DNA from: Gammaproteobacteria bacterium
GTDB lineage: Bacteria > Pseudomonadota > Gammaproteobacteria > HK1
DNA: 64,000 bases
Direction of reading: 5' to 3'
Assembly: GCA_021773645.1 (NCBI GenBank)
Contig: JAJFJU010000015.1
Coordinates: forward strand, 1 to 64,000
Shown here: positions 1 through 17,798 of the stretch, one piece after another
How the letters are laid out: every line of letters starts with the position of its first letter
Numbering within the stretch: the first letter of the stretch is position 1
Notes under the pieces: generated by a model
The model's input: only the letters and a program-made list of their open reading frames with translations
Database searches by the model: none
Told to the model about the DNA's origin: nothing
Made by a program: the position numbers and the translations under genes

Positions 1-171
1 CGCTCGGCAACGGTACTGGGGCTCGTGGGCGCCGGTGGTATCGGTTTTATCCTCACCTCCGCTATCGCCGAATTTGAATACCAGCAGGCTATTACTGTTC
101 TGGGCGTGATTGTCATCATTCTGACCGTCATTGACCGGACCAGCGCGGCCGCTCGCAGCAGGATTATCTAA
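1..171 (+). CDS. phnE: PhnE-type ABC transporter permease, C-terminal fragment
   Basis: This is the last 56 codons of a gene that starts before the window. The visible part has the RSATVLGLVGAGGIG stretch that closes binding-protein-dependent permeases of the phosphonate (PhnE) type, followed by one hydrophobic helix and a basic tail. The next gene, 2 nt downstream, carries an equivalent segment (RQATVLGFVGAGGLG), so the transporter has two related permease subunits. The ATPase (PhnC) and binding protein (PhnD) are presumably to the left and cannot be seen. The family imports phosphonates, phosphite or hypophosphite; the substrate cannot be read from the permease. Confidence 0.85.
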   Translation, partial: RSATVLGLVGAGGIGFILTSAIAEFEYQQAITVLGVIVIILTVIDRTSAAARSRII

Positions 172-173
172 TC

Positions 174-977
174 ATGGCAAATGAAACGACAGCCAACGCG
201 GTGCCTATGCCGCACTTTCCCGCACGCTATACACCGTTCCGCTTGGTTATCGCAGTGGTTCTGGCGGCAATCTACTGGTGGTCTGTTGTCGGAGCGGAGT
301 TTAGCCCCGTCGAATTGGCCAAGGGGCTCCCGAAGGTATGGGAAACCCTGGTGCTGATGTTTCCACCAAGCATTGAAGGCTATAAAAGCCTTTGGGTACC
401 TTTCTGGGAAACCCTCTATATTGGCGTTTTGGCAACCTTCTTTGGTTCCATTATCTCGATTCCAGTGGGTTTCGCAGCGTCCACTAATATGGTCCCTTGG
501 TACATCTACCATCCCGTTCGTATGGTGCTGAATATCTTCCGTGGTGTTTCGGAGATTATTTGGGCGCTGTTCTTCGTGGTGGCGGTAGGCTTGGGTCCGA
601 TGCCGGGCGTTATCGCACTTACCATCTTCTCGGTAGGCATGCTTTCAAAGCTGCTTTCCGAGGCAGTGGAAGCCTCCGATATCGGTATGCTTGAAGCCAT
701 GACGGCTACTGGCGCGAGCCGTTGGAAGGTGTTCTTCTACGGTGCGCTACCAGAAGTGTTCCCGCTGTATATCAGCTACACGCTGTATTACTGGGATCAC
801 AACACACGTCAAGCAACCGTGCTCGGGTTCGTGGGTGCCGGCGGTTTGGGTGTGACCTTGCTCTGGAACATGAGTATGTATGAGTTTGAGCAGGCGACTA
901 CCGTGGTGATTATCATTGTTTGTATGATCACCGTGATTGACCGTCTCTGCCTCAAGATGCGTGAGGCCATTCAGTAA
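174..977 (+). CDS. phnE: PhnE-type phosphonate ABC transporter permease
   Basis: A 267-residue inner-membrane permease. A first helix lies near residues 23-40, further helices follow from about 80, and an EAA-type cytoplasmic loop that docks the ATPase lies near 174-196 (GMLEAMTATGASRWKVF). The length and the closing VLGFVGAGGLG segment fit PhnE. The ATG lies 2 nt after the stop of the preceding permease, so the two are almost certainly co-translated. A strong terminator at 1018-1050 ends the operon. The family moves organophosphonates or reduced phosphorus oxyanions inward using ATP. The nearby phosphonatase-family hydrolase favours an organophosphonate, but this is inference. Confidence 0.88.
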   Translation: MANETTANAVPMPHFPARYTPFRLVIAVVLAAIYWWSVVGAEFSPVELAKGLPKVWETLVLMFPPSIEGYKSLWVPFWETLYIGVLATFFGSIISIPVGFAASTNMVPWYIYHPVRMVLNIFRGVSEIIWALFFVVAVGLGPMPGVIALTIFSVGMLSKLLSEAVEASDIGMLEAMTATGASRWKVFFYGALPEVFPLYISYTLYYWDHNTRQATVLGFVGAGGLGVTLLWNMSMYEFEQATTVVIIIVCMITVIDRLCLKMREAIQ

Positions 978-1017: not shown

Positions 1018-1050
1018 AAAACCGCCCTCCATTGGAGGGCGGTTTTTTTT
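1018..1050 (+). terminator. Rho-independent terminator after phnE
   Basis: A 13-bp perfect stem (AAACCGCCCTCCA and its complement) with a minimal loop is followed by eight T residues. It separates the transporter operon from the MFS gene and argues against any start for that gene upstream of 1050. Confidence 0.93.
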
Positions 1051-1117: not shown

Positions 1118-2311
1118 ATGGCCGTAGATTCCTCCAATGCCCGTTCGAACAAGGTGCTGTTTTCCGCATCCAGTTGCCATATGGTGCACGACGGCTACAG
1201 CAACTTGTTATACACCTTGGCGCCTCTTTGGGCCCTGGCCTACGGCTTTAATGCCACCCAGGTTGGCATTCTGGTGGGTGGCTATGTGGGGGCGATGGCG
1301 TTATTTCAGATTCCCGCCGGATTTCTAGCCGAGCGAATCGGCGAAAGGCTGCCTTTAGTGGCCGGTATGCTACTGGTGGCGACGGCCTTTACTGCAGTGG
1401 GCTTAGTCGAGAGTTATGAAGCCTTTCTCCTCTTGCTAATACTCGCTGGCATCGGCTCAGGCGTACAGCATCCACTTTCCTCTAGCATTATCAGTTCTGC
1501 ATTTACACCGGAGCGACGGCGCGTGGCCCTGGGTGTTTATAATTTCGCCGGCGATGTGGGCAAGGCCTCTTATCCAGTACTGGCGGCGGCTTTGATGTTG
1601 GTTTTGAGTTGGCGCAGCACCACCTTGGTATTTGGCTGTGTGACAGTTTTTCTGGGCATGGCCATTTTCCTAATGTTGCGCAGCCTGAAAGTCGGGGAGC
1701 ATCCCCGTCAGGTGAAACGCCCGGAAGGTATTGCCAAGGTTTCTGGTTGGGGTATTCTTCGACCCCGATCGTTTACCCTGCTTAGCCTGATCGGCATGTT
1801 GGATTCTGCAGCGCGTATGGGTTTTCTAACCTTCATTCCTTTTTTGCTAGTGGCCAAAGGGATGGGTATTGAACGTACTGGTTTCGCCTTTGGCCTGGTC
1901 TTCGTCGGTGGTGCCTTCGGGAAATATGTATGCGGGCTACTGGCGGCGCGCTTGGGCGTTATCCGCACCGTATTAATTACTGAGGTGGCCACTGGGGTAG
2001 GGATATTGTTGGCTCTGGTATTACCGCTCGAGCCGTTGTTCTGGACCTTGCCAATTATTGGCGTGGCCATGAACGGAACCTCTACGGTGCTTTATGGCAG
2101 TGTTGCAGATTTCGTTTCTGAGGAACGGCAGGCTCGGGGGTATGGACTTTTTTACACCCTGCTTTTTGGTGCCTCGGCTATGGCCCCCGTTACATTGGGT
2201 CTGATTAATGACGGGGTTGGTCTTGAATTTAGTATTGCTGCCATTGGCGTTCTTGCATTATTAACCTTGCCGTTGCTAATACCCATGAGCCGGGAATTAC
2301 GAGCAGCCTAA
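1118..2311 (+). CDS. Major facilitator superfamily transporter
   Basis: A 397-residue protein of about 12 hydrophobic segments with MFS features: a basic loop after helix 2 (GFLAERIGERLP) and a motif in helices 4-5 (GVQHPLSSSII, then ERRRVALGVYNFAGDVGKA). The N-terminal HMVHDGYSNLL stretch recalls the fosmidomycin-resistance (Fsr) group, which exports phosphonate antibiotics; the resemblance is by eye only. The frame is open from 1013, but that start lies in the preceding terminator, so I chose ATG 1118, with GGAG at 1101-1104. Its place between a phosphonate-type importer and a phosphonatase-like hydrolase suggests movement of a phosphonate, a product or phosphate. The substrate is not determined. 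Confidence 0.85.
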   Translation: MAVDSSNARSNKVLFSASSCHMVHDGYSNLLYTLAPLWALAYGFNATQVGILVGGYVGAMALFQIPAGFLAERIGERLPLVAGMLLVATAFTAVGLVESYEAFLLLLILAGIGSGVQHPLSSSIISSAFTPERRRVALGVYNFAGDVGKASYPVLAAALMLVLSWRSTTLVFGCVTVFLGMAIFLMLRSLKVGEHPRQVKRPEGIAKVSGWGILRPRSFTLLSLIGMLDSAARMGFLTFIPFLLVAKGMGIERTGFAFGLVFVGGAFGKYVCGLLAARLGVIRTVLITEVATGVGILLALVLPLEPLFWTLPIIGVAMNGTSTVLYGSVADFVSEERQARGYGLFYTLLFGASAMAPVTLGLINDGVGLEFSIAAIGVLALLTLPLLIPMSRELRAA

Positions 2312-2686: not shown

Positions 2687-3634
2687 ATGACAATGAAGGT
2701 ATGCTTGGTCACCAATGCAGCGGAAGATACCGCTGCTTATACTGACGGGATTTTCCCGGCTGATTCGGAAGTTCTGTTGCTGACTGCGGAAGAGATGGAA
2801 GCGCGGATTGAAGAGATTAACTTCCTCGTCCCCGGCCACATCGACGTCAATGCCGATTTCCTGAATCGCGCCAAGAACCTGCGTCTTGTGCATTGTGGCA
2901 CTGGCTACAACAACGTAGATCTGGAAGCCGCCAACAAGAATAACTGCTATGTTTGCGTGACCCCGAACGTCGCAGCTACTTCCGTTGCCGAGCTGGTTTG
3001 GAGTTCCTTGAGCTCCCTCAAAAACCACATCGCCGAATTCGATGCCATCCTTAAGGACGGCGGCTGGAAGTCCACCGACTTCATCGGTATTCCTGAATTC
3101 AAGGGTAAGACCTTTGGTGTCGTTGGTTACGGTAACATCGGTCGCGAAGCCGCTCGTATTGCCCGTGGCTATGGCATGACCGTTATCGCCCACGACCCCT
3201 ACTGCAAAGAGACCAATGACGGCACCGAGCTGGTTGAGCTGGACGTACTGGTCAAAACTGCCGATTTCATCACCCTGCATGTGCTGCTGACCCCGGAAAC
3301 CACCGGTCTGTTTGGTGCCGAGCAGTTTGAAGCCATGAAAGACACCGCCATGCTGGTTAATGCATGTCGTGGTCCGGTGGTTGATGAGGCCGCTCTGGTC
3401 GAGGCCCTCCAGGCCAAGAAGATTGCTGGTGCCTGTCTCGACGTGTTCGAGAAAGAGCCGCTGGATCCGAAGAGCCCGCTGCGCGATCTGAACAACATCG
3501 TTCTGACCCCGCACATTGCTTTCTGCTCCAACGAAGCCCTTAAGGGTCGTTACCAGTTCTTCGCTGACAACGCCCACAAGCTGGCCTCGGGCGAAGTACC
3601 TAACATGGCCGTGAATGCGGACCAGGTTAGCTAG
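2687..3634 (+). CDS. D-isomer-specific 2-hydroxyacid dehydrogenase
   Basis: A 315-residue NAD-dependent oxidoreductase of the D-2-hydroxyacid dehydrogenase family, which also contains SerA, glycerate dehydrogenase and phosphite dehydrogenase PtxD. The nucleotide-binding motif GYGNIG is at 147-152, followed by Asp170, which favours NAD over NADP. The catalytic triad appears as Arg228 (NACRG), Glu257 (DVFEKEP) and His276 (TPHIA). It has no ACT domain, and a true serA exists at 43934. The start has a good RBS (GAGGA) and is followed by a strong terminator. Codon use is strongly biased (CGT, GGT, CTG, AAC), like that of the next two genes. The neighbourhood suggests a phosphonate-related hydroxyacid or aldehyde; the substrate is not known. 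Confidence 0.85.
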   Translation: MTMKVCLVTNAAEDTAAYTDGIFPADSEVLLLTAEEMEARIEEINFLVPGHIDVNADFLNRAKNLRLVHCGTGYNNVDLEAANKNNCYVCVTPNVAATSVAELVWSSLSSLKNHIAEFDAILKDGGWKSTDFIGIPEFKGKTFGVVGYGNIGREAARIARGYGMTVIAHDPYCKETNDGTELVELDVLVKTADFITLHVLLTPETTGLFGAEQFEAMKDTAMLVNACRGPVVDEAALVEALQAKKIAGACLDVFEKEPLDPKSPLRDLNNIVLTPHIAFCSNEALKGRYQFFADNAHKLASGEVPNMAVNADQVS

Positions 3635-3656
3635 TACCGGTTAACACCGTGCTATG

Positions 3657-3691
3657 ACTTGTCCCGGCCTTCGTGCCGGGGCAAGTTTTTT
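3657..3691 (+). terminator. Terminator after the dehydrogenase, with a second hairpin behind it
   Basis: A 12-bp stem (ACTTGTCCCGGC with GCCGGGGCAAGT, one G-T pair) is followed by T6. A second, weaker hairpin, GGGAGT-CTTCGT-ACTCCC, lies at 3713-3730 and is followed by TTTGTTT. Together they should uncouple the dehydrogenase from the transketolase gene. Confidence 0.85.
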
Positions 3692-3828
3692 CGGCTTTTA
3701 GGCCGGAAGTTAGGGAGTCTTCGTACTCCCTTTGTTTGACCCCCTAAGAATCAACACATCCGTTTTGGATGGCTGCTTGTCATTTTGGGGTTCACTAATT
3801 CATAAGCTACGTAATAGCAGGAGTTAAC

Positions 3829-5775
3829 ATGGGAAAATCTGTTGCAGAACTTGAAGAAATCGTCAAGAGCTTTAAAGCCCTTGGCATGACCATGAGTTCC
3901 GCCGTGGGCGGTGGTCATGTAGGTGGTGCCATGTCCGGTGCCGAGTGGATGATTGCTGGCTGGTTTGACAAGATGAACATCGATCCGGAATCTGATTCCC
4001 GTGATCGTTATTTCGTTGGCCAGGGCCACATCACCCCCGGAATCTATTCGCTGCTGGTCCACAAGGGCTACTACAAGTGGCAGGACACTGTAGGCTACCG
4101 TCGTTATGGCAGCCCCTTCCAGGGTCACCCGGATCGCACCAAGCTGTATGGCTGGGAAATGTCCTCTGGTTCCTTGGGCCAGGCCCTTGGCGTAGCTGTT
4201 GGCTCCGCGTTGGCCGCCAAACTGCAGGGCAAGGATCATTGGATCGTTACCCAGAACAGTGACGGCGAGCTGCAGGAAGGCAGCATGTGGGAAGCCATCA
4301 TGTTTGCCGGTGCCCATGGCCTCGACAATCTGGTTACCTTCATCGATTTCAACCGCATCCAGAACTACAGCCGCATTGAGGACTGTAATGAGCTGGAGCC
4401 CCTGGCTGACAAGTTCCGCGCCTTTAACTGGGAAGTTATTGAACTTGCCGATGGCAACGACATGCAGTCCGTTTGCGATGCCTATGACAAGGCCATGGTG
4501 CCGGGTAAAGGCAAGCCGACAGTAGTCATTGGTACTACCAAAATCGGTAAGGGCGTTTCCTTCATGCATGACGTGGTTGCCTATCACTCCAAGGCTCCGG
4601 GTCGCGATCAGTTGGCTGGCGCTTTCGAAGAGCTGGGTGTTGAGTTCCCGCACGAAGAGTTCTGCAAGCTGGCTGACGAGTATCAGGAAAAGGTTACCGC
4701 CGAGCTTAACGATGCGGATCCGAAGTTCAGCAAGGCCTATGGCTGGAATGCTGGCGATGACATGAAGGTCGAGCAGGTTTGGACCGGTATTGGCATCACC
4801 GAGGGTTTCCGTGAGTGCTTGGACGCTGACAAGAACGTCATCGTTTGTACTGACGACTCCCATAAGCTCATCGGCATGAATGACGATGACAAAACCAAGT
4901 ACAAGGCCAGCAACCAGTTTGTAGACGTCGGTTGTGCCGAGCAGAACATGGCTATGATCTCTGCCGGTCTGGCAAAAGAGGGCTTCATTCCTCTGACCCA
5001 GGGTTACACTGGTTTTGCGGTTGGCCGTGGTTATGACCACATCCGTACCAGCATCGCCTTCTCCGACTTCAATGCCAAGTACTTCCCGACGGAAGCGCTG
5101 CTAGGCGGCGACGGCGGCATGCATGAGTGCATGGAAGGCATCACTTTGGGCTACTACATGCCCAACATGCGCATCCAGTGGCCGTGTGATAACAACGAAG
5201 CCAAGCGTGCCACCAAGGCCGCTATTTCTGAGGTGAAGGGTCCGATCATCACCCTGCAGGAACGTGCTCCGAAGCCTGTCGTCACTAAGGCTGATACCCC
5301 TTATCAGTATGGGGTAGCCAACATCATCAACTTCACCGGTCGTCAGGCTAACTTCGTAGATGCTTTCGATACTGCCCTTTCCACCGAGTGGAAGTCCCGC
5401 AGTGCCGATCTGGCTATCGTTGCCTGTGGTTCCATGGTGTCTGAAGCGATGCGTGCAGCCGTTATCCTCAAAGAGGAGAAGGGACTGGACGTGACCGTGG
5501 TCAATATGCACACCGTCAAGCCTCTGGATGCTGCTGGCCTGGTTAAGGCTGTTGAGGGCGTTAAGGGCGTGATTGCTATCTCCCAGGATCACAACGAAGC
5601 GCTGGGTAACATCGTTGCCGGTACCATTCTTGAAGCGGGCCCAGGTCCGAAGATGAAGCGCATGGGCGTGCAGGACCAGTTCGGTCAGACTGCCAAGCCT
5701 TATGAGCTGGTACAGCACTACGGCATCACTGCCGAGCACATTGCTGAAAGCGCCATCGAACTTCTCGGTGCCTAA
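3829..5775 (+). CDS. Transketolase-family thiamine-diphosphate enzyme
   Basis: A 648-residue single-chain transketolase-like enzyme. The N-terminal ThDP-binding domain shows GHVGGAMS, RDRYFVGQGH, the GSLGQALGVAVG stretch and a variant Mg/ThDP motif NSDGELQEGS in place of the usual GDG. The central pyrimidine domain has the catalytic glutamate in VGCAEQNMAMISAGLAKEG. The C-terminal domain ends YELVQHYGITAEHI, typical of the family. It is not much like the standard TktA N-terminus and resembles fused versions of split transketolases. It has a strong RBS (CAGGAG), optimised codons and terminators on both sides. The family moves two-carbon ketol units; a role on a phosphonate or its breakdown product is inferred only from its neighbours. 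Confidence 0.85.
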   Translation: MGKSVAELEEIVKSFKALGMTMSSAVGGGHVGGAMSGAEWMIAGWFDKMNIDPESDSRDRYFVGQGHITPGIYSLLVHKGYYKWQDTVGYRRYGSPFQGHPDRTKLYGWEMSSGSLGQALGVAVGSALAAKLQGKDHWIVTQNSDGELQEGSMWEAIMFAGAHGLDNLVTFIDFNRIQNYSRIEDCNELEPLADKFRAFNWEVIELADGNDMQSVCDAYDKAMVPGKGKPTVVIGTTKIGKGVSFMHDVVAYHSKAPGRDQLAGAFEELGVEFPHEEFCKLADEYQEKVTAELNDADPKFSKAYGWNAGDDMKVEQVWTGIGITEGFRECLDADKNVIVCTDDSHKLIGMNDDDKTKYKASNQFVDVGCAEQNMAMISAGLAKEGFIPLTQGYTGFAVGRGYDHIRTSIAFSDFNAKYFPTEALLGGDGGMHECMEGITLGYYMPNMRIQWPCDNNEAKRATKAAISEVKGPIITLQERAPKPVVTKADTPYQYGVANIINFTGRQANFVDAFDTALSTEWKSRSADLAIVACGSMVSEAMRAAVILKEEKGLDVTVVNMHTVKPLDAAGLVKAVEGVKGVIAISQDHNEALGNIVAGTILEAGPGPKMKRMGVQDQFGQTAKPYELVQHYGITAEHIAESAIELLGA

Positions 5776-5795: not shown

Positions 5796-5830
5796 GAAGG
5801 GGGGTGGTTCGCCACCCTCCTTCTTTTTTT
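5796..5830 (+). terminator. Terminator-like hairpin between transketolase and phosphonatase-like gene
   Basis: A roughly 12-bp stem with a TTCG loop (GAAGGGGGGTGG pairing with CCACCCTCCTTC) runs directly into a T-rich tract. The next gene's Shine-Dalgarno (AGGAG, 5832-5836) follows at once. It would end most transcripts and may set a lower level for the hydrolase. Confidence 0.8.
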
Positions 5831-5842
5831 CAGGAGTCAATT

Positions 5843-6745
5843 ATGGCTAATAAAAGTATTGTTGATTTGGTGGTCTTTGACCTCGGCGGTACCGTCTGTG
5901 ACGGTATTGATGAGGAAACTGGTCTTGCCAATCTGGGTCCGATTAATGCGCTGCGCTTCAGCTTGAAGCGGGTGTGGGATATCGATCCTCCCTTCGACGT
6001 GATCCTGCCGCATATGGCGACGCGTAAGCTCGACCATCTGTTCAAGATCCTATCGACGCCTTCCATAGCGGCGGAGTTCAAGGAAAAGCACGGCCGTGAG
6101 CCGGTCTTTGCCGATGCCGAGTTCTGCTTCAATAGCGCTTTCAAGGAAATCCTTGAGGTCGACGAAATGCCGAAGCGTTCGGAGCCTTTTGAAGGCGTCA
6201 TCGACATGTTCAAGGACCTTAAGTCCAAGGGCATCAAGATTGGTATCGATACCGGTTTCTATGCCAAGGCAGTGCGTATCATCCTTGGCAAGTTTGGCCA
6301 CAACCACCTGATCGACGCCGACATCGGTGCTGATGAGGTTTCCCAGGCACGTCCCTGGCCGTTCATGATGTTCAAGCTCATGGATGAACTGGAAGTCATC
6401 GATGTGCGTCGGGTGATGAAGGTGGGTGATGTGTATCCCACCGATTTCCTGGAAGGTTACAACGTCGGTGGTATTTCCGTGGGCCTGACCGAGTGCGGTA
6501 ACTCCCGTCCGGCGAGCACCTGGAAATCTTTCGAGACTTCCGATGGTCGTGAGGTTCGTGCGGTGGATTGGTTCAGCACTAGCCTGGAAGAGAAAGATCA
6601 GATGTTCCGTGGTTGGTTGCGTGATGCTGCGGACAACGGTACCCGAGTGCCTTATCCCATGGTACTCATCCCTCATTCTAACCAGCTTACTCAGCTGATT
6701 AATGAGATGGAGCAGATCGCTCCGGTGTTCACCTCCTTGCTATAA
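5843..6745 (+). CDS. HAD hydrolase of the phosphonoacetaldehyde hydrolase (PhnX) family
   Basis: A 300-residue protein. HAD motif I is FDLGGT with nucleophile Asp13. The phosphonatase cap signature is present: Met58, Lys62 and His65 in MATRKLDH align with the Met-x3-Lys-x2-His of PhnX, where the lysine forms the Schiff base with the substrate carbonyl. Further matches are IKIGIDTGF (131-139), QARPWPFMMFK (168-178) and KVGDVYPTD (193-201). The usual alanine two residues after the nucleophile is glycine here, and there is an extra C-terminal part of about 40 residues. The family splits the C-P bond of phosphonoacetaldehyde into acetaldehyde and phosphate. No phnW aminotransferase is in view, so the aldehyde may come from another route. 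Start ATG 5843 is chosen because AGGAG precedes it; the frame is open upstream only through the hairpin. Confidence 0.82.
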   Translation: MANKSIVDLVVFDLGGTVCDGIDEETGLANLGPINALRFSLKRVWDIDPPFDVILPHMATRKLDHLFKILSTPSIAAEFKEKHGREPVFADAEFCFNSAFKEILEVDEMPKRSEPFEGVIDMFKDLKSKGIKIGIDTGFYAKAVRIILGKFGHNHLIDADIGADEVSQARPWPFMMFKLMDELEVIDVRRVMKVGDVYPTDFLEGYNVGGISVGLTECGNSRPASTWKSFETSDGREVRAVDWFSTSLEEKDQMFRGWLRDAADNGTRVPYPMVLIPHSNQLTQLINEMEQIAPVFTSLL

Positions 6746-6785: not shown

Positions 6786-6822
6786 AAGCCCCGGTCGTGC
6801 AACTACGACCGGGGCTTTTTTT
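6786..6822 (+). terminator. Terminator after the phosphonatase-like gene
   Basis: A 13-bp perfect stem (AAGCCCCGGTCGT and its complement) with a 6-nt loop and a T tract closes the catabolic block. Confidence 0.93.
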
Positions 6823-7097: not shown

Positions 7098-7760
7098 ATG
7101 GAACTTCCAAAGATGAAGGGCCTATTTGGCCGTTCGCGCGCCCTCGAAGTGGAAATTGATCACTTTCACGACAAACTTTCCCAGTCCGCCGTTATTTTTA
7201 AAACCGCTCTGGCTGCCTATCTCAAGGCCGGCGCCACTGATAGCTTCATTGAGCGTCAAGAGCACTTAAATGCCCTTGAGACCGAGGGTGACAAATTGCG
7301 TCGCTCCATTGAGACCAAGCTGTATGCCGAGACCCTGATCCCGGAGTCCCGCGGTGATGTGCTGGGTTTGCTTGAGGCCTCCGACGAGGTCCACGGTGCG
7401 TTGCAGGGTGCGTTGTGGGGTTTTGCCATTGAACTGCCCGATATTCCTGAGGAATTTCGCGAGGAGTTCATGGAGCTGGGTGATATGGCGGTGATGACCG
7501 TGGAGTCCCTGGTACTCGCATCACGCGCTTTCTTCCGCAATATCGAGGCGGTACTTGATCACAATCACAAGGTCGAATTCTATGAAACCGAGGCGGATAA
7601 GATCAGCAGCAAGCTGAAAATATCTATCTTTCGCTCCGATCTGGATTTGGCTCGTAAGCTGCACCTGCGTACCTTTGTTGAACGTATCGATGAGATAGCA
7701 GACAAGGCCGAGGATGTTGCCGATCATCTAAATATCTACGCCATCAAGCGTTCGATTTAA
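7098..7760 (+). CDS. DUF47 / PhoU-like protein partnered with Pit
   Basis: A 220-residue, largely alpha-helical protein of the DUF47 (TIGR00153, PhoU-like) family. It shows the acidic helix-bundle pattern of the family, for example the ends YETEADKISSKLKISIF and ERIDEIADKAEDVADHLN, which hold the E(D)xxxD-type metal-binding residues of PhoU-like proteins. These proteins sit beside Pit transporters and are thought to modulate phosphate flux. The reading frame is open from 6939, but the first ATG with an RBS (AGGAGCAGG) is at 7098. The gene is 12 nt upstream of pit and shares its promoter. Confidence 0.88.
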   Translation: MELPKMKGLFGRSRALEVEIDHFHDKLSQSAVIFKTALAAYLKAGATDSFIERQEHLNALETEGDKLRRSIETKLYAETLIPESRGDVLGLLEASDEVHGALQGALWGFAIELPDIPEEFREEFMELGDMAVMTVESLVLASRAFFRNIEAVLDHNHKVEFYETEADKISSKLKISIFRSDLDLARKLHLRTFVERIDEIADKAEDVADHLNIYAIKRSI

Positions 7761-7772
7761 AGGGAGCGGTCG

Positions 7773-9251
7773 ATGGAAATCGCAGTTCTATTCTTTTTGT
7801 CCAGCGGGCTTTTTCTCGGTTGGGCACTGGGAGCGAACGATGCCGCTAACGTCTTCGGGACGGCAGTGGGTACGCGGATGGTCAAGTTTGGCACCGCGGC
7901 ACTTATCTGCAGCATCTTCGTTATTCTCGGGGCTACCATCAGTGGTGCTGGTGCCGCCCATACTCTCGGAAAACTCGGTGCGGTCAACGCCCTGGGTGGT
8001 TCTTTCATGGCGGCTTTTTCGGCTGCGGCTGCCGTTTATGCCATGACCAAGGTGGGGATACCGGTTTCTACCTCGCAGGCCATTGTCGGATCCATTATTG
8101 GCTGGAATCTATATAGCGAAAATGTCACTGATACTAACGCGCTGATCAAGATCGTAACCACCTGGTTTGTTTGCCCGGTGCTGGCGGCAGTGCTTGGTGC
8201 GTCCCTGTACAAGTTGACTCACGTGGTGCTGGGATTTGCCAAGCTACATCTGCTGCGTCTTGATGCCTATACGCGTGTTGGACTGGTCCTGGCTGGTGCC
8301 TTTGGTTCTTATAGCCTGGGTGCTAATAACATCGCCAACGTCATGGGTGTGTTTGTGCCGTCTTCACCGTTTACCGAGTTTCGCTTTATGGATCTCGTGA
8401 CGCTGAGTTCGGTGCAGCAGTTATTTCTGCTTGGGGCGATTGCTATTGCCGTGGGTGTGTTTACCTATTCCAAACGCGTGATGCTAACGGTTGGGGGTGG
8501 TTTGATGCCTCTGAGTGCCGTCGGTGCTTGGGTGGTGGTGGTCTCTCACTCCATCGTGCTCTTTCTGTTTGCATCGGTGGGGCTGGAGTCGATTCTTGCC
8601 TCCAACGGTCTACCCACTATACCGCTGGTGCCGGTATCCAGTTCACAGGCGGTTATCGGTGCGGTGATCGGTATAGGTCTGCTCAAGGGTGGGCGAGGTA
8701 TACGCTGGAAGGTGCTCGGGGGTATTTTTACCGGTTGGATGATTACTCCGGTGATTTCCGCACTTATCTGTTTCGTTGGCCTGTATTTCCTGCAGAATGT
8801 CTTTGATCAGAAGGTCTACCAATCGGTTAGTTTTGAGATGAGCGAAAGGGTGCTCGAACGTTTGGGTCAAGAAAAGATTCCCCGCACACATTTTGTTGAT
8901 CTCACAGGGCAGCGTTACGAAAATGGCCGAGCGTTGATGCAGGCGGTTGGTAAGCAGACCTCCCTGAGCAGCAAGGAAGAGAGCAAGGTGCTCGACTTTG
9001 CCAAAGTGGTTCCGTTGACCGTCTCTATCGACAAGATAGAACACCTGGATATGGAGTGGTTTAGTGGGCCGCAGATTCAGGCTCTGAAAGAGCTGAGTGG
9101 TCGCTCGTATCACCATAGCTGGATGTTGGCGGATGCGCTTGCCAAGCAGTCTGAGGCCTGGAAACTCAAGCCAAAGACGACGGCTAATAAGCTCTATAAC
9201 AAGGGTGTTAGGCAACGCTTGGAGGGGCTCTACCGGAAGTTCAAGGACTAG
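7773..9251 (+). CDS. pit: Pit-family inorganic phosphate transporter with C-terminal extension
   Basis: A 492-residue inner-membrane protein with the two PiT signatures, GANDAANVFGTAVGTR (about 20-35) and GANNIANVMGV (about 184-194), in an inverted-repeat membrane fold. The membrane part ends near residue 345, and a soluble tail of about 145 residues follows, rich in charged residues and without an obvious known domain. Pit carriers move metal-phosphate with protons and can run in either direction. Next to a phosphonatase-like enzyme that frees phosphate, export is an attractive guess but not shown. Cotranscribed with DUF47 and closed by a terminator at 9295. Confidence 0.9.
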   Translation: MEIAVLFFLSSGLFLGWALGANDAANVFGTAVGTRMVKFGTAALICSIFVILGATISGAGAAHTLGKLGAVNALGGSFMAAFSAAAAVYAMTKVGIPVSTSQAIVGSIIGWNLYSENVTDTNALIKIVTTWFVCPVLAAVLGASLYKLTHVVLGFAKLHLLRLDAYTRVGLVLAGAFGSYSLGANNIANVMGVFVPSSPFTEFRFMDLVTLSSVQQLFLLGAIAIAVGVFTYSKRVMLTVGGGLMPLSAVGAWVVVVSHSIVLFLFASVGLESILASNGLPTIPLVPVSSSQAVIGAVIGIGLLKGGRGIRWKVLGGIFTGWMITPVISALICFVGLYFLQNVFDQKVYQSVSFEMSERVLERLGQEKIPRTHFVDLTGQRYENGRALMQAVGKQTSLSSKEESKVLDFAKVVPLTVSIDKIEHLDMEWFSGPQIQALKELSGRSYHHSWMLADALAKQSEAWKLKPKTTANKLYNKGVRQRLEGLYRKFKD

Positions 9252-12855: not shown

Positions 12856-13590
12856 GTGCGAAAGTTTTTTTCCATTTTGGGTGGGAGTCTACGGGATCTG
12901 GCACCCATCTTCCTGACCATTGCGGTCTTTCAACTACTCATATTGCGGCAACCCATTCCGGACTTGGGCGCTTTGGTGTCTGGCTTAGTACTGGTGGTGC
13001 TGGGCCTTACGCTGTTTATCCAGGGACTAGAGCTGGGACTTTTTCCGTTAGGGGAGTCCTTGGCTTATGCCTTTGCTCGCAAGGGGAGTCTACCGTGGTT
13101 GCTGCTGTTTTCCTTTGCGCTCGGTTTTGGCACCACGGTGGCGGAGCCAGCGCTGATTGCCGTGGCGGCGGAGGCCGCCGAGGTGGCTGCAGCCGGATCC
13201 TATATCCTCGATGAGGTGGCAAGTAAGGAAAGCTATGCCTTTCAGTTGCGCATGGTGGTCGGCTTGGCGGTGGGGATCGCTATCGTCCTGGGGGTGTTCC
13301 GAATTCTGCGTGGTTGGCCGATCCAGTATTTTATCCTCGGAGGCTACATCGGGGTGATCGCGCTTACCCCATTTGCCCCCCGGGAATTCATCGGCATCGC
13401 CTACGACTCCGGCGGGGTCACGACCTCTACCATTACCGTTCCCCTGGTGACTGCGCTGGGGGTGGGTTTGGCCTCCAGTATCCAAGGTCGTAACCCCATG
13501 ACCGATGGCTTTGGTCTCATTGCCTTTGCCTCCCTGAGCCCCATGCTGTTTGTTATGGGTTATGGCATTTTGCTGCAGGCGGGCCAGTGA
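12856..13590 (+). CDS. DUF1538 membrane protein, first copy
   Basis: A 244-residue integral membrane protein with about six or seven hydrophobic segments. It has the DUF1538 signature [15 protein letters not shown] at about 181-195 and [14 protein letters not shown] near the C-terminus. The start is GTG 12856 ([10 protein letters not shown]); a longer frame here is on a different register. Its stop overlaps the start of the second copy. The family has no proven function, but its polar DSGGVTTST segment between helices, together with the PII-like and CBS partners, suggests a regulated transporter. Confidence 0.85.
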
Positions 13591-14363
13591 ATTTTCTGCT
13601 GGAACTGGGGCAGGTACTGGTGGAGACCATCCGCGATGTATTGCCTATTCTTGCGATCATCGGTGGTTTTCAATTTTTTGTTATCCGTCGGCCGATTCCG
13701 AATCTGAAGCGCGTGGCCCTGGGTGTGGTGTATGTGATTCTCGGGTTGGCGCTGTTTCTCAAGGGATTGGAGCAGGCGTTGTTTCCCTTGGGCAAGTTAA
13801 TGGCTCAACAATTAACCGACCCGGATTTTCTCCAGGGCATCACTGGTAGGGCTGCCGAACAGCTCGGCTGGGGGGATTATTACTGGGTCTATGTTTTTGC
13901 CTTTGCCATCGGCTTTTCCACCACCATTGCCGAGCCTTCGTTATTGGCGGTGGCGATTAAGGCTCAGGAAGTTTCGGGTGGCGCCATCAGCGTCAGGGGA
14001 CTGCGTGTGTCCGTTGCCCTAGGTGTTGCCGTTGGCATTACTCTGGGGTGCTTTCGGATCGTCAGCGGGACCCCGCTTTATCTCTATATTATCGCCGGCT
14101 ATGTGTTGGTCATGGTGCAGACGTTGTTTGTCCCCCGTGGAATTATTGCGCTGGCTTATGATTCTGGCGGGGTGACCACTTCAACCGTCACCGTGCCTAT
14201 CGTTGCCGCCCTGGGGCTTGGGCTGGCAACTCACGTGCCGGGGCGTAGCCCGATACTGGATGGCTTTGGCCTCATTGCTTTTGCGAGTCTGTTTCCCATC
14301 ATGGGGGTGCTGGCCTATGCCCAGCTTAGCCAGTGGCGCCATGAGCGGAAGCTATCGAAATAA
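13587..14363 (+). CDS. DUF1538 membrane protein, second copy
   Basis: A 258-residue paralogue of the gene before it with the same signature ([15 protein letters not shown], then [14 protein letters not shown]) and the same helix pattern, including [12 protein letters not shown] / [12 protein letters not shown] in the two copies. GTG 13587 overlaps the previous stop by 4 bp, so translation is coupled. The two chains probably form one complex. Function unknown. Confidence 0.85.
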
Positions 14364-17131: not shown

Positions 17132-17432
17132 AGTGCTCTAACGCTTAAACGTTCCCCGATAAAGCCACCGCCCTAAGTCAACAATAGCAGAGAAGCTTTT
17201 ACCCCGTTTTCACTAATGGGAAGCGTACACTCTCAAGCCCGAGGAAATGTTAAAGGTTCCCCACCATTCAGCGGGTGGTGCACTTGTGATACTAGGGAGA
17301 AGTTCAGACTCGATTGATGCCAAGATCCTCCACGGTGAGATCATGCTGGCGTTAAGCGCGTGCTTGCCATGTCGTCCACTTCTTCGTTTGACAGTATTCA
17401 TGCCTGCACCCTACACTGCGCCGCAGTCATAT
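17132..17432. other. 300-bp gap before the cobalamin riboswitch; possible gene remnant
   Basis: No intact gene is evident. A short plus-strand frame from 17247 begins MLKVPHHSAGG, which recalls the (L)KVPHHGS stretch of metallo-beta-lactamase-fold hydrolases. The rest does not continue the family, so at most it is a decayed fragment. Confidence 0.3.
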
Positions 17433-17625
17433 GAGGTGCTCTGAAGGCATTCGCTGGAGGAGTGAAATGGGAAGCCGGTGCGTCGCGCGATTCGCGTGCA
17501 CAATTCCGGCGCTGCCCCCGCAACGGTAGGTGAGTTACCGCGGACCAGAAGCCACTGCGCATATGCGTGGGAAGGCGGTTCGTTTGGCCGCAAGGCCGCT
17601 CACAAGCCCGGAGACCGGCCTGAAA
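17433..17625 (+). ncRNA. Cobalamin (B12) riboswitch
   Basis: The region has the ordered conserved blocks of the class: GGTGC...AAGGCAT at the 5' end, GGGAAGCCGGTG, the core GCTGCCCCCGCAACGGTAG, GCGGACCAGAAGCCACTG, GTGGGAAGGCGG and the 3' B12 box AGCCCGGAGACCGGCCT (about 17605-17621). It lies about 175 nt before the start of the TonB-dependent receptor and should lower expression of the B12 uptake operon when adenosylcobalamin is plentiful. Confidence 0.94.
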
Positions 17626-17798
17626 TGACGCTAATCCCGTTGCGGAGGGCAACCCGGGTGAGCGTGATTTCGTGGAAGTTGTTTCCCGACCGGGTGATGT
17701 CTCGCCCCACGCCATCCCACAGTTTCTCGTAGCGGATCCTGAAATCTGTTAGGTCGTTGCGTGGCGCGGGTGTGCCTGCTGACGTCCGGGAGTCTGTG

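What the first reader, a model, noticed from the sequence alone, without database searches (positions are those of the whole stretch)
5843..6745. Phosphonatase-family enzyme with a glycine at the +2 position and a longer C-terminus
Classic PhnX has Asp-x-Ala-Gly-Thr at the nucleophile; here it is Asp-Leu-Gly-Gly-Thr. The cap motif is intact, and about 40 extra residues follow the usual end. This may mark a subgroup with a different substrate.
Basis: partly seen in the sequence, partly recalled or inferred. Interest (0 to 1): 0.5.

Follow-up and report, generated by a model that had tools for sequence, protein, structure and literature searches.

The report
Divergent phosphonate-cleaving enzyme beside transketolase
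This gene encodes an unusual relative of a known enzyme that splits carbon-phosphorus bonds, and it sits with a phosphonate importer and a modified transketolase instead of the usual partner enzyme, which suggests an undescribed way for uncultured bacteria to obtain phosphate from an organic phosphonate.

Summary
The 300-aa ORF at 5843-6745 is real. It has D13-L-G15-G-T and keeps the phosphonatase Schiff-base lysine (K62) with M58 and H65. The claimed 40-residue C-terminal tail is wrong: the extra residues are internal (7 after motif I, 1 in motif IV, about 20 before the last strand). Among 54 family members with the lysine motif, the +2 residue is Ala in 45, Ser in 5 and Gly in 4. The four glycine proteins are the window, its two same-genus orthologues, and a 29%-identical protein from another genus (G003). 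The first three fall outside the canonical PhnX clade (97/95), on long branches. In both genera the gene sits beside phnDCEE importers whose PhnDs are 55% identical. Companion enzymes differ: D-2-hydroxyacid dehydrogenase plus transketolase here, a PhyH oxygenase in G003. None of the three same-genus genomes has PhnW or PepM over cut-off, and one (G016) also carries a canonical PhnX. The transketolase keeps its ThDP machinery but has lost the sugar-phosphate clamp. Best reading: a divergent lysine-dependent phosphonatase in an import-and-cleave module whose beta-carbonyl phosphonate comes from an enzyme other than PhnW, plausibly the transketolase. The C-P hydrolase role is likely; the substrate is unproven. 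Structure prediction failed (pLDDT 36.5).

The parts
1..171 (+). tail of phnE1 (permease), cut by the contig start
   Evidence: G016 synteny: L010 phnE1 3492-4316, phnE2 ATG at 4318; window begins at base 1 of contig C7. Inferred from synteny.
174..977 (+). phnE2, phosphonate ABC transporter permease
   Evidence: TIGR01097 261.3 bits, over cut-off 216.7. phnD lies at G000 C12:30941-31849, near the other contig's end.
1018..1046 (+). terminator-like hairpin after phnE2
   Evidence: 13-pair stem plus T run
1118..2311 (+). MFS transporter (ATG 1118 preferred over GTG 1013)
   Evidence: MFS_1 142.9 bits; start by comparison with L010
2687..3634 (+). D-2-hydroxyacid dehydrogenase (HADH1)
   Evidence: 2-Hacid_dh_C 194.6 bits; all NCBIfam models listed are below cut-off
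3829..5775 (+). transketolase-like ThDP enzyme (TK1), 648 aa
   Evidence: Transketolase_N 132.4 bits; NF004559 364.5 bits, below cut-off 488; phosphate-clamp residues absent
5796..5823 (+). terminator/attenuator-like hairpin directly before the PhnX-like ribosome site
   Evidence: 12-pair stem, T7; kept in three species with one compensatory G-C to A-U change
5843..6745 (+). PhnX-like HAD protein, glycine subgroup
6786..6817 (+). intrinsic terminator after the PhnX-like gene
   Evidence: 14-pair stem plus T run

Best explanation
The protein is a divergent lysine-dependent phosphonatase (HAD fold, C1 cap). As in B. cereus PhnX, K62 would form a Schiff base with the carbonyl of a beta-carbonyl phosphonate, D13 would attack phosphorus with Mg2+ held by D13, the Gly15 backbone and D196, R170 and T137 would bind the phosphonyl group, and phosphate would be released. 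It works in an import-and-cleave module: PhnDCEE imports a phosphonate, an upstream enzyme other than PhnW turns it into phosphonoacetaldehyde or a close beta-carbonyl analogue, and this enzyme cleaves it. In the window's genus the upstream enzymes are most likely the D-2-hydroxyacid dehydrogenase and the transketolase-like protein; in G003 the role falls to a PhyH oxygenase. Shown: residues, gene order, relatives, missing partners. Inferred: C-P hydrolysis, order of steps, substrate.
For: All main B. cereus catalytic positions map: D12/D13, M49/M58, K53/K62, H56/H65, T126/T137, R160/R170, D186/D196 (roles from the PMC7916636 and PMC11203657 passages). 7 of 9 PDB sequences matched are phosphonatases or a phosphonatase-like protein (3iru), for the window and for the G003 protein alike. 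Profile-profile match to PhnX: E 2.3e-37 over 256 columns. HAD proteins without the lysine motif among the same loci mostly have Asp at +2 (23 of 33 rows); this one has no acid there. The phnDCEE + PhnX-like pairing recurs in G003 with a 55%-identical PhnD. PhnW over cut-off: 0 of 3 same-genus genomes. TK1 keeps ThDP residues but loses the phosphate clamp, while G000 has a separate housekeeping transketolase. Precedent: sulfo-TK transketolase yields sulfoacetaldehyde (PMC11659671 passages).
Against: Below the TIGR01422 cut-off. Tyr128 is Phe, Gly50 is Ala, and motif IV has an extra residue. PhnD's best PDB match is phosphite-binding PtxB at 95 bits, not PhnD. Terminator-like hairpins separate phnE2, HADH1, TK1 and the PhnX-like gene, so co-transcription is not assured. 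Gene order around TK1 is shared only by congeners whose whole region is syntenic. A TK1 paralogue (60% identity) with its own 2-HADH lies about 14 kb away without any PhnX gene in that cluster, so this transketolase family is not phosphonate-specific. No reliable structure.
Confidence: 0.6

Rival explanations
1. Ordinary phosphonoacetaldehyde hydrolase that has merely drifted in a fast-evolving lineage; phosphonoacetaldehyde arises from AEP or HAEP by an unrecognised enzyme (for example a 2-HADH-fold racemase such as PbfF plus a lyase), and TK1 is a bystander.
For: Main catalytic residues kept; PbfF is a pfam02826 protein that feeds PhnX (PMC12366243 passages); long branches.
Against: A canonical PhnX of 311.6 bits coexists in G016; 0 of 3 genomes have PhnW over cut-off; coordinated changes at W13, A14, C22, G50, Y128 and two inserts.
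Confidence: 0.25
2. Substrate is not phosphonoacetaldehyde but a larger or carboxylated beta-carbonyl phosphonate (for example phosphonopyruvate from phosphonolactate by HADH1, or a phosphono-ketose); TK1 uses the carbon product.
For: HADH1 belongs to the D-2-hydroxyacid family; loop rebuilt next to the active site and bulky Trp lost.
Against: The only phosphonopyruvate hydrolase named in the review passages is PEP-mutase fold (PMC10574752); no direct evidence for such a substrate.
Confidence: 0.25
3. Phosphite-uptake locus: PtxB-like binding protein plus PtxD-like dehydrogenase; the HAD protein does something else.
For: PhnD best matches PtxB; PtxD belongs to the same dehydrogenase family; plasmid phnCDE with 'phosphonate dehydrogenase' at L117.
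Against: HADH1 is 30% identical to that dehydrogenase, and the Arg301 position, fully conserved in phosphite dehydrogenases (PMC3909101), is not Arg in HADH1; the Lys of ALKGYDN is Thr (importance of that Lys is recalled). G003 pairs the same transporter type with an oxygenase instead.
Confidence: 0.07
4. Phosphate-ester phosphatase or an enzyme that has lost C-P cleavage.
For: Only below-cut-off scores to every HAD model listed; substitutions at Tyr128 and Gly50.
Against: No Asp acid/base at +2; Schiff-base Lys, Met and His all kept at 29% overall identity between genera.
Confidence: 0.1

Closest known systems
Phosphonoacetaldehyde hydrolase PhnX (TIGR01422; B. cereus structures 1fez, 1swv, 1rql, 1rdf)
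   Same: HAD fold with C1 cap; nucleophile Asp, Lys53/Met49/His56, Thr126, Arg160, Asp186 all conserved
   Different: 118.8 bits against cut-off 220; D-L-G-G-T instead of D-W-[AS]-G-T; Phe for Tyr128, Ala for Gly50; inserts after motif I and before the last strand; no phnW; outside the PhnX clade
G003 protein L067:1397-2209 (other genus, same family)
   Same: D-I-G-G-T-V-C-D-G, insert after motif I, Lys/Met/His, next to phnDCEE
   Different: 29% identity; 14-residue insert; no C-terminal insert; keeps Tyr and MG; neighbour is a PhyH oxygenase; tree places it near canonical PhnX, one origin with the window not rejected (p-AU 0.378)
Sulfo-TK pathway (SqwGH transketolase to sulfoacetaldehyde, PMC11659671)
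   Same: a specialised transketolase would make a C2 aldehyde carrying an acid group beside an enzyme for that aldehyde; proposed analogy only
   Different: phosphorus not sulfur; single-chain TK1; no sugar isomerase seen in the locus; product would be hydrolysed by a phosphonatase
PbfF HAEP racemase (2-HADH fold) in phnX clusters (PMC12366243)
   Same: 2-hydroxyacid-dehydrogenase-fold protein in a phosphonate locus
   Different: PbfF is reported only from two alphaproteobacterial orders and works with PbfA; HADH1 sequence not compared with PbfF

Membership tests
Phosphonoacetaldehyde hydrolase PhnX (TIGR01422) | Schiff-base Lys53 with Met49 and His56 in the cap | tested here: met
   K62, M58, H65
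Phosphonoacetaldehyde hydrolase PhnX (TIGR01422) | score over the curated cut-off of 220 bits | tested here: not met
   118.8 bits; G003 relative 154
Phosphonoacetaldehyde hydrolase PhnX (TIGR01422) | D-W-[AS]-G-T motif I | tested here: not met
   D-L-G-G-T; 50 of 53 other lysine-motif rows have D-W-[AS]-G-T
Phosphonoacetaldehyde hydrolase PhnX (TIGR01422) | groups inside the PhnX clade | tested here: inconclusive
   outside a 51-row clade at 97/95, but branch of 3.8 changes per column
Phosphonoacetaldehyde hydrolase PhnX (TIGR01422) | phosphonoacetaldehyde hydrolysis | not testable with these tools
   needs an assay
PhnX-like (TIGR03351) | score over cut-off 218.9 | tested here: not met
   71.3 bits
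Transketolase (for TK1) | ThDP-site catalytic His residues and Glu | tested here: met
   four His and the Glu align with G000's own transketolase; residue roles recalled
Transketolase (for TK1) | sugar-phosphate clamp (Arg358, Ser385, His461 in E. coli numbering, recalled) | tested here: not met
   absent from TK1 and TK2, present in housekeeping TK
Phosphite dehydrogenase PtxD (for HADH1) | Arg301, fully conserved in the family | tested here: not met
   not Arg in HADH1 (PMC3909101)
PhnWX pathway | phnW in the genome | tested here: not met
   0 of 3 same-genus genomes over the TIGR03301 cut-off; G003 has one, on another contig

The most novel reading that the evidence does not exclude
A phosphono-transketolase pathway: PhnDCEE imports a phosphonate with a ketose-like or 2-hydroxyacid carbon skeleton, HADH1 adjusts its oxidation state, TK1 (lacking the sugar-phosphate clamp) splits off or transfers a two-carbon unit to leave phosphonoacetaldehyde or an analogue, and the glycine-type phosphonatase frees phosphate. 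It would be the phosphorus counterpart of the sulfo-TK route and a C-P cleavage pathway that does not start with a transaminase.
Probability: 0.25. Interest if true: 0.75.

Novelty: new variant of a known kind. Interest (0 to 1): 0.5.

Why it matters
PhnX is the model phosphonatase, and known ways to make its substrate run through PhnW, PbfA or FAD oxidases (PMC10574752 passages). A separate phosphonatase lineage tied to its own importer subfamily, but served by a transketolase in one genus and an oxygenase in another, points to phosphonates whose breakdown is not described and gives named genes with which to identify them. If the substrate differs, it also shows which active-site positions may set phosphonatase specificity.

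Tried and rejected
The single genome-contig scan gave only the two congeners. Plasmid and phage searches gave only matches under 60% identity: 50 of 72,556 plasmid records and 3 of 50,697 phage records for the window protein, and 53 of 72,556 plasmid records for the G003 protein. Of the window-protein plasmid hits I fetched 13 and none was glycine-type; the other hits were not read. Phosphite-locus reading rejected on Arg301. Phosphonate biosynthesis rejected: PepM over cut-off in 0 of 3 genomes; the best hit in G000 is methylisocitrate lyase. Literature: in the held library no paper joined transketolase with phosphonatase terms (0 papers; 1, unrelated by its abstract; 85 papers held at least two of the terms, and the 15 listed were, by title and abstract, on inhibitors or unrelated topics). 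The source paper of the OFTM MAGs was not found.

Rows left out before counts. One search dropped loci duplicating a gene already counted (L001, L009, L029, L069-L071, L076, L077), the own-genome locus L002, and the neighbourhood loci L010-L023, L067, L068; rows without the lysine motif were counted apart (33). One search listed 40 places; 9 had no locus and were not read. The tree used 61 rows: window, 53 lysine-motif rows and 7 outgroup rows chosen from those without the motif.

Full report
Observation. The ORF at 5843-6745 (+) is 300 aa, starts at ATG and reads MANKSIVDLVVFDLGGTVCDG. Motif I is D13-L14-G15-G16-T17. The cap motif MATRKLDH aligns with MGLLKIDH of solved B. cereus phosphonatase. 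The claim of a longer C-terminus is not right. In a 27-row alignment and in a profile-profile alignment the final strand and helix coincide with those of PhnX. The extra residues are 7 after motif I, one in motif IV (GDVYPTD) and about 20 before the last strand.

How unusual the glycine is. Among 53 other rows that carry the phosphonatase lysine motif, +2 is Ala in 45, Ser in 5 and Gly in 3, and all 50 non-Gly rows read D-W-[AS]-G-T. Two of the three Gly rows are the congeners. The third, from G003 (another genus of the same family), reads D-I-G-G-T-V-C-D-G, is 29% identical, and has its own 14-residue insert after motif I. A review places B. cereus Ala14 as a Mg2+ ligand through its oxygen, Cys22 as holder of a water, and Tyr128, Met49 and His56 as activating water (PMC7916636, one passage seen). 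Read against that, glycine is a mild change; Leu for Trp13, Phe139 for Tyr128, Ala59 for Gly50 and the rebuilt Cys22 loop are the larger ones. The G003 protein keeps the Tyr and the Gly50 equivalent.

Relatedness. TIGR01422 is the best family for both proteins, but below its cut-off of 220: 118.8 bits for the window and 154 for G003. In a tree of 61 rows the window clade lies outside a 51-row clade holding all canonical PhnX (97/95), on a branch of 3.8 changes per column. The G003 row sits inside that clade on a branch of 3.3; a single origin for the four glycine rows is not rejected (p-AU 0.378). With such branches I do not claim one clade. Profile searches found no further glycine member among the hits read: 11 of 340 class genomes and 38 of 383 phylum genomes had hits; the loci read were the three congeners, canonical D-W-[AS]-G-T rows, and one DIAGT protein without the lysine motif, L075; 9 of the 40 places had no locus and were not read.

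Neighbourhood. The window starts at a contig end. In G016 the full order is phnD, phnC, phnE1, phnE2, MFS, 2-HADH, transketolase (TK1), PhnX-like; G015 has the same ORF order by position and length. In G000 phnD lies 1.8 kb from the end of contig C12. Terminator-like hairpins follow phnE2 (1018-1046) and TK1 (5796-5823), and a weaker one follows HADH1 (3667-3682). The one before the PhnX-like gene is kept in all three species with one compensatory pair change. Transcription as one unit is therefore not shown; the hairpin may tune the dose of the PhnX-like enzyme.

In G003 the order is phnD, phnC, phnE1, phnE2, PhyH oxygenase, PhnX-like. PhnD of the two genera is 55% identical, against at most 33% to the 25 plasmid PhnDs listed of 980 records matched. 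Same importer type and same PhnX type with different middle enzymes is the strongest contextual evidence that the importer and the PhnX-like protein belong together.

Missing partners. PhnW over cut-off: 0 of 3 congeners, 1 in G003 on another contig. PepM over cut-off: 0 of 3. A canonical PhnX over cut-off is present in G016 and absent from G000 (G015 was not in that search). In G016 it lies near a phosphonate-associated alcohol dehydrogenase (TIGR03366, 384 bits over cut-off 328) and an aldehyde dehydrogenase. So the glycine protein is not a replacement for PhnX in that genome.

Transketolase. TK1 matches transketolase models only below cut-off (364.5 against 488). Against G000's own housekeeping transketolase it keeps the histidines and the Glu of the ThDP site and the Asp/His of G-x-D-G-x-x-H, but lacks the Arg, Ser and His that grip the sugar phosphate (residue roles are recalled). 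A 60%-identical paralogue with its own 2-HADH lies about 14 kb upstream in G016, between pyruvate-dehydrogenase-type E1 genes and an E2 gene, and a 61%-identical one lies at the matching place in G015. So a transketolase plus 2-HADH pair occurs twice, which weakens the idea that the pair is specific to phosphonates. At E <= 1e-100 the TK1 family was found in 1 of 398 phylum genomes, the window's own, and at 1e-120 in 3 of 369 class genomes, the window's own and the two congeners.

Mechanism. The lysine, nucleophile, Thr, Arg and metal Asp are in place, so Schiff-base C-P hydrolysis is the best reading. The substrate must then be a beta-carbonyl phosphonate. With no PhnW found, it must come from other enzymes. 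The sulfo-TK pathway gives a chemical precedent: a transketolase cleaves 4-deoxy-4-sulfoerythrulose to sulfoacetaldehyde (PMC11659671, passages seen). The phosphorus analogue would give phosphonoacetaldehyde, the PhnX substrate. Alternatives are phosphonopyruvate or a phosphono-ketose as direct substrate. In G003 an oxygenase that oxidises or dealkylates C2 of a phosphonate could give the same intermediate. All of this paragraph after its first clause is inference.

Verdict. A real, rare and divergent phosphonatase-type protein in a new gene setting: a new variant of a known kind. C-P hydrolase role likely; altered substrate or substrate source plausible; the phosphono-transketolase pathway is a hypothesis at about one in four.

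Noticed in passing
window 5796-5823: Strong terminator-like hairpin with T run directly before the PhnX-like ribosome site, kept in three species with a compensatory pair change; possible attenuator.
   Followed up: partly
L017:10171-19321 (G016) and L019:12349-19480 (G015, positions only): Second cluster about 14 kb upstream: in G016 two E1 alpha/beta pairs, a 60%-identical transketolase paralogue, a second 2-HADH, a 3-hydroxyacyl-CoA dehydrogenase-like protein and a lipoyl E2; no such transketolase paralogue was found in G000.
   Followed up: partly
L068:6850-10461 (G016): Canonical PhnX (D-W-A-G-T) with aldehyde dehydrogenase and a TIGR03366 alcohol dehydrogenase, in the same genome as the glycine-type protein and without PhnW over cut-off.
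   Followed up: partly
L067:2229-3056: PhyH-family oxygenase between phnE2 and the glycine-type PhnX in G003; the only NCBIfam model listed is a chlorinating-enzyme subfamily, below cut-off.
   Followed up: partly
window 17417-17637: Cobalamin riboswitch (RF00174, 103 bits).
   Followed up: no
window 12856-14363: Two similar membrane proteins in tandem (shared [11 protein letters not shown] motif), probably a duplicated pair.
   Followed up: no
window 7113-9251: PhoU-like DUF47 protein and a putative phosphate permease directly after the PhnX-like terminator; may take part in phosphate handling.
   Followed up: no
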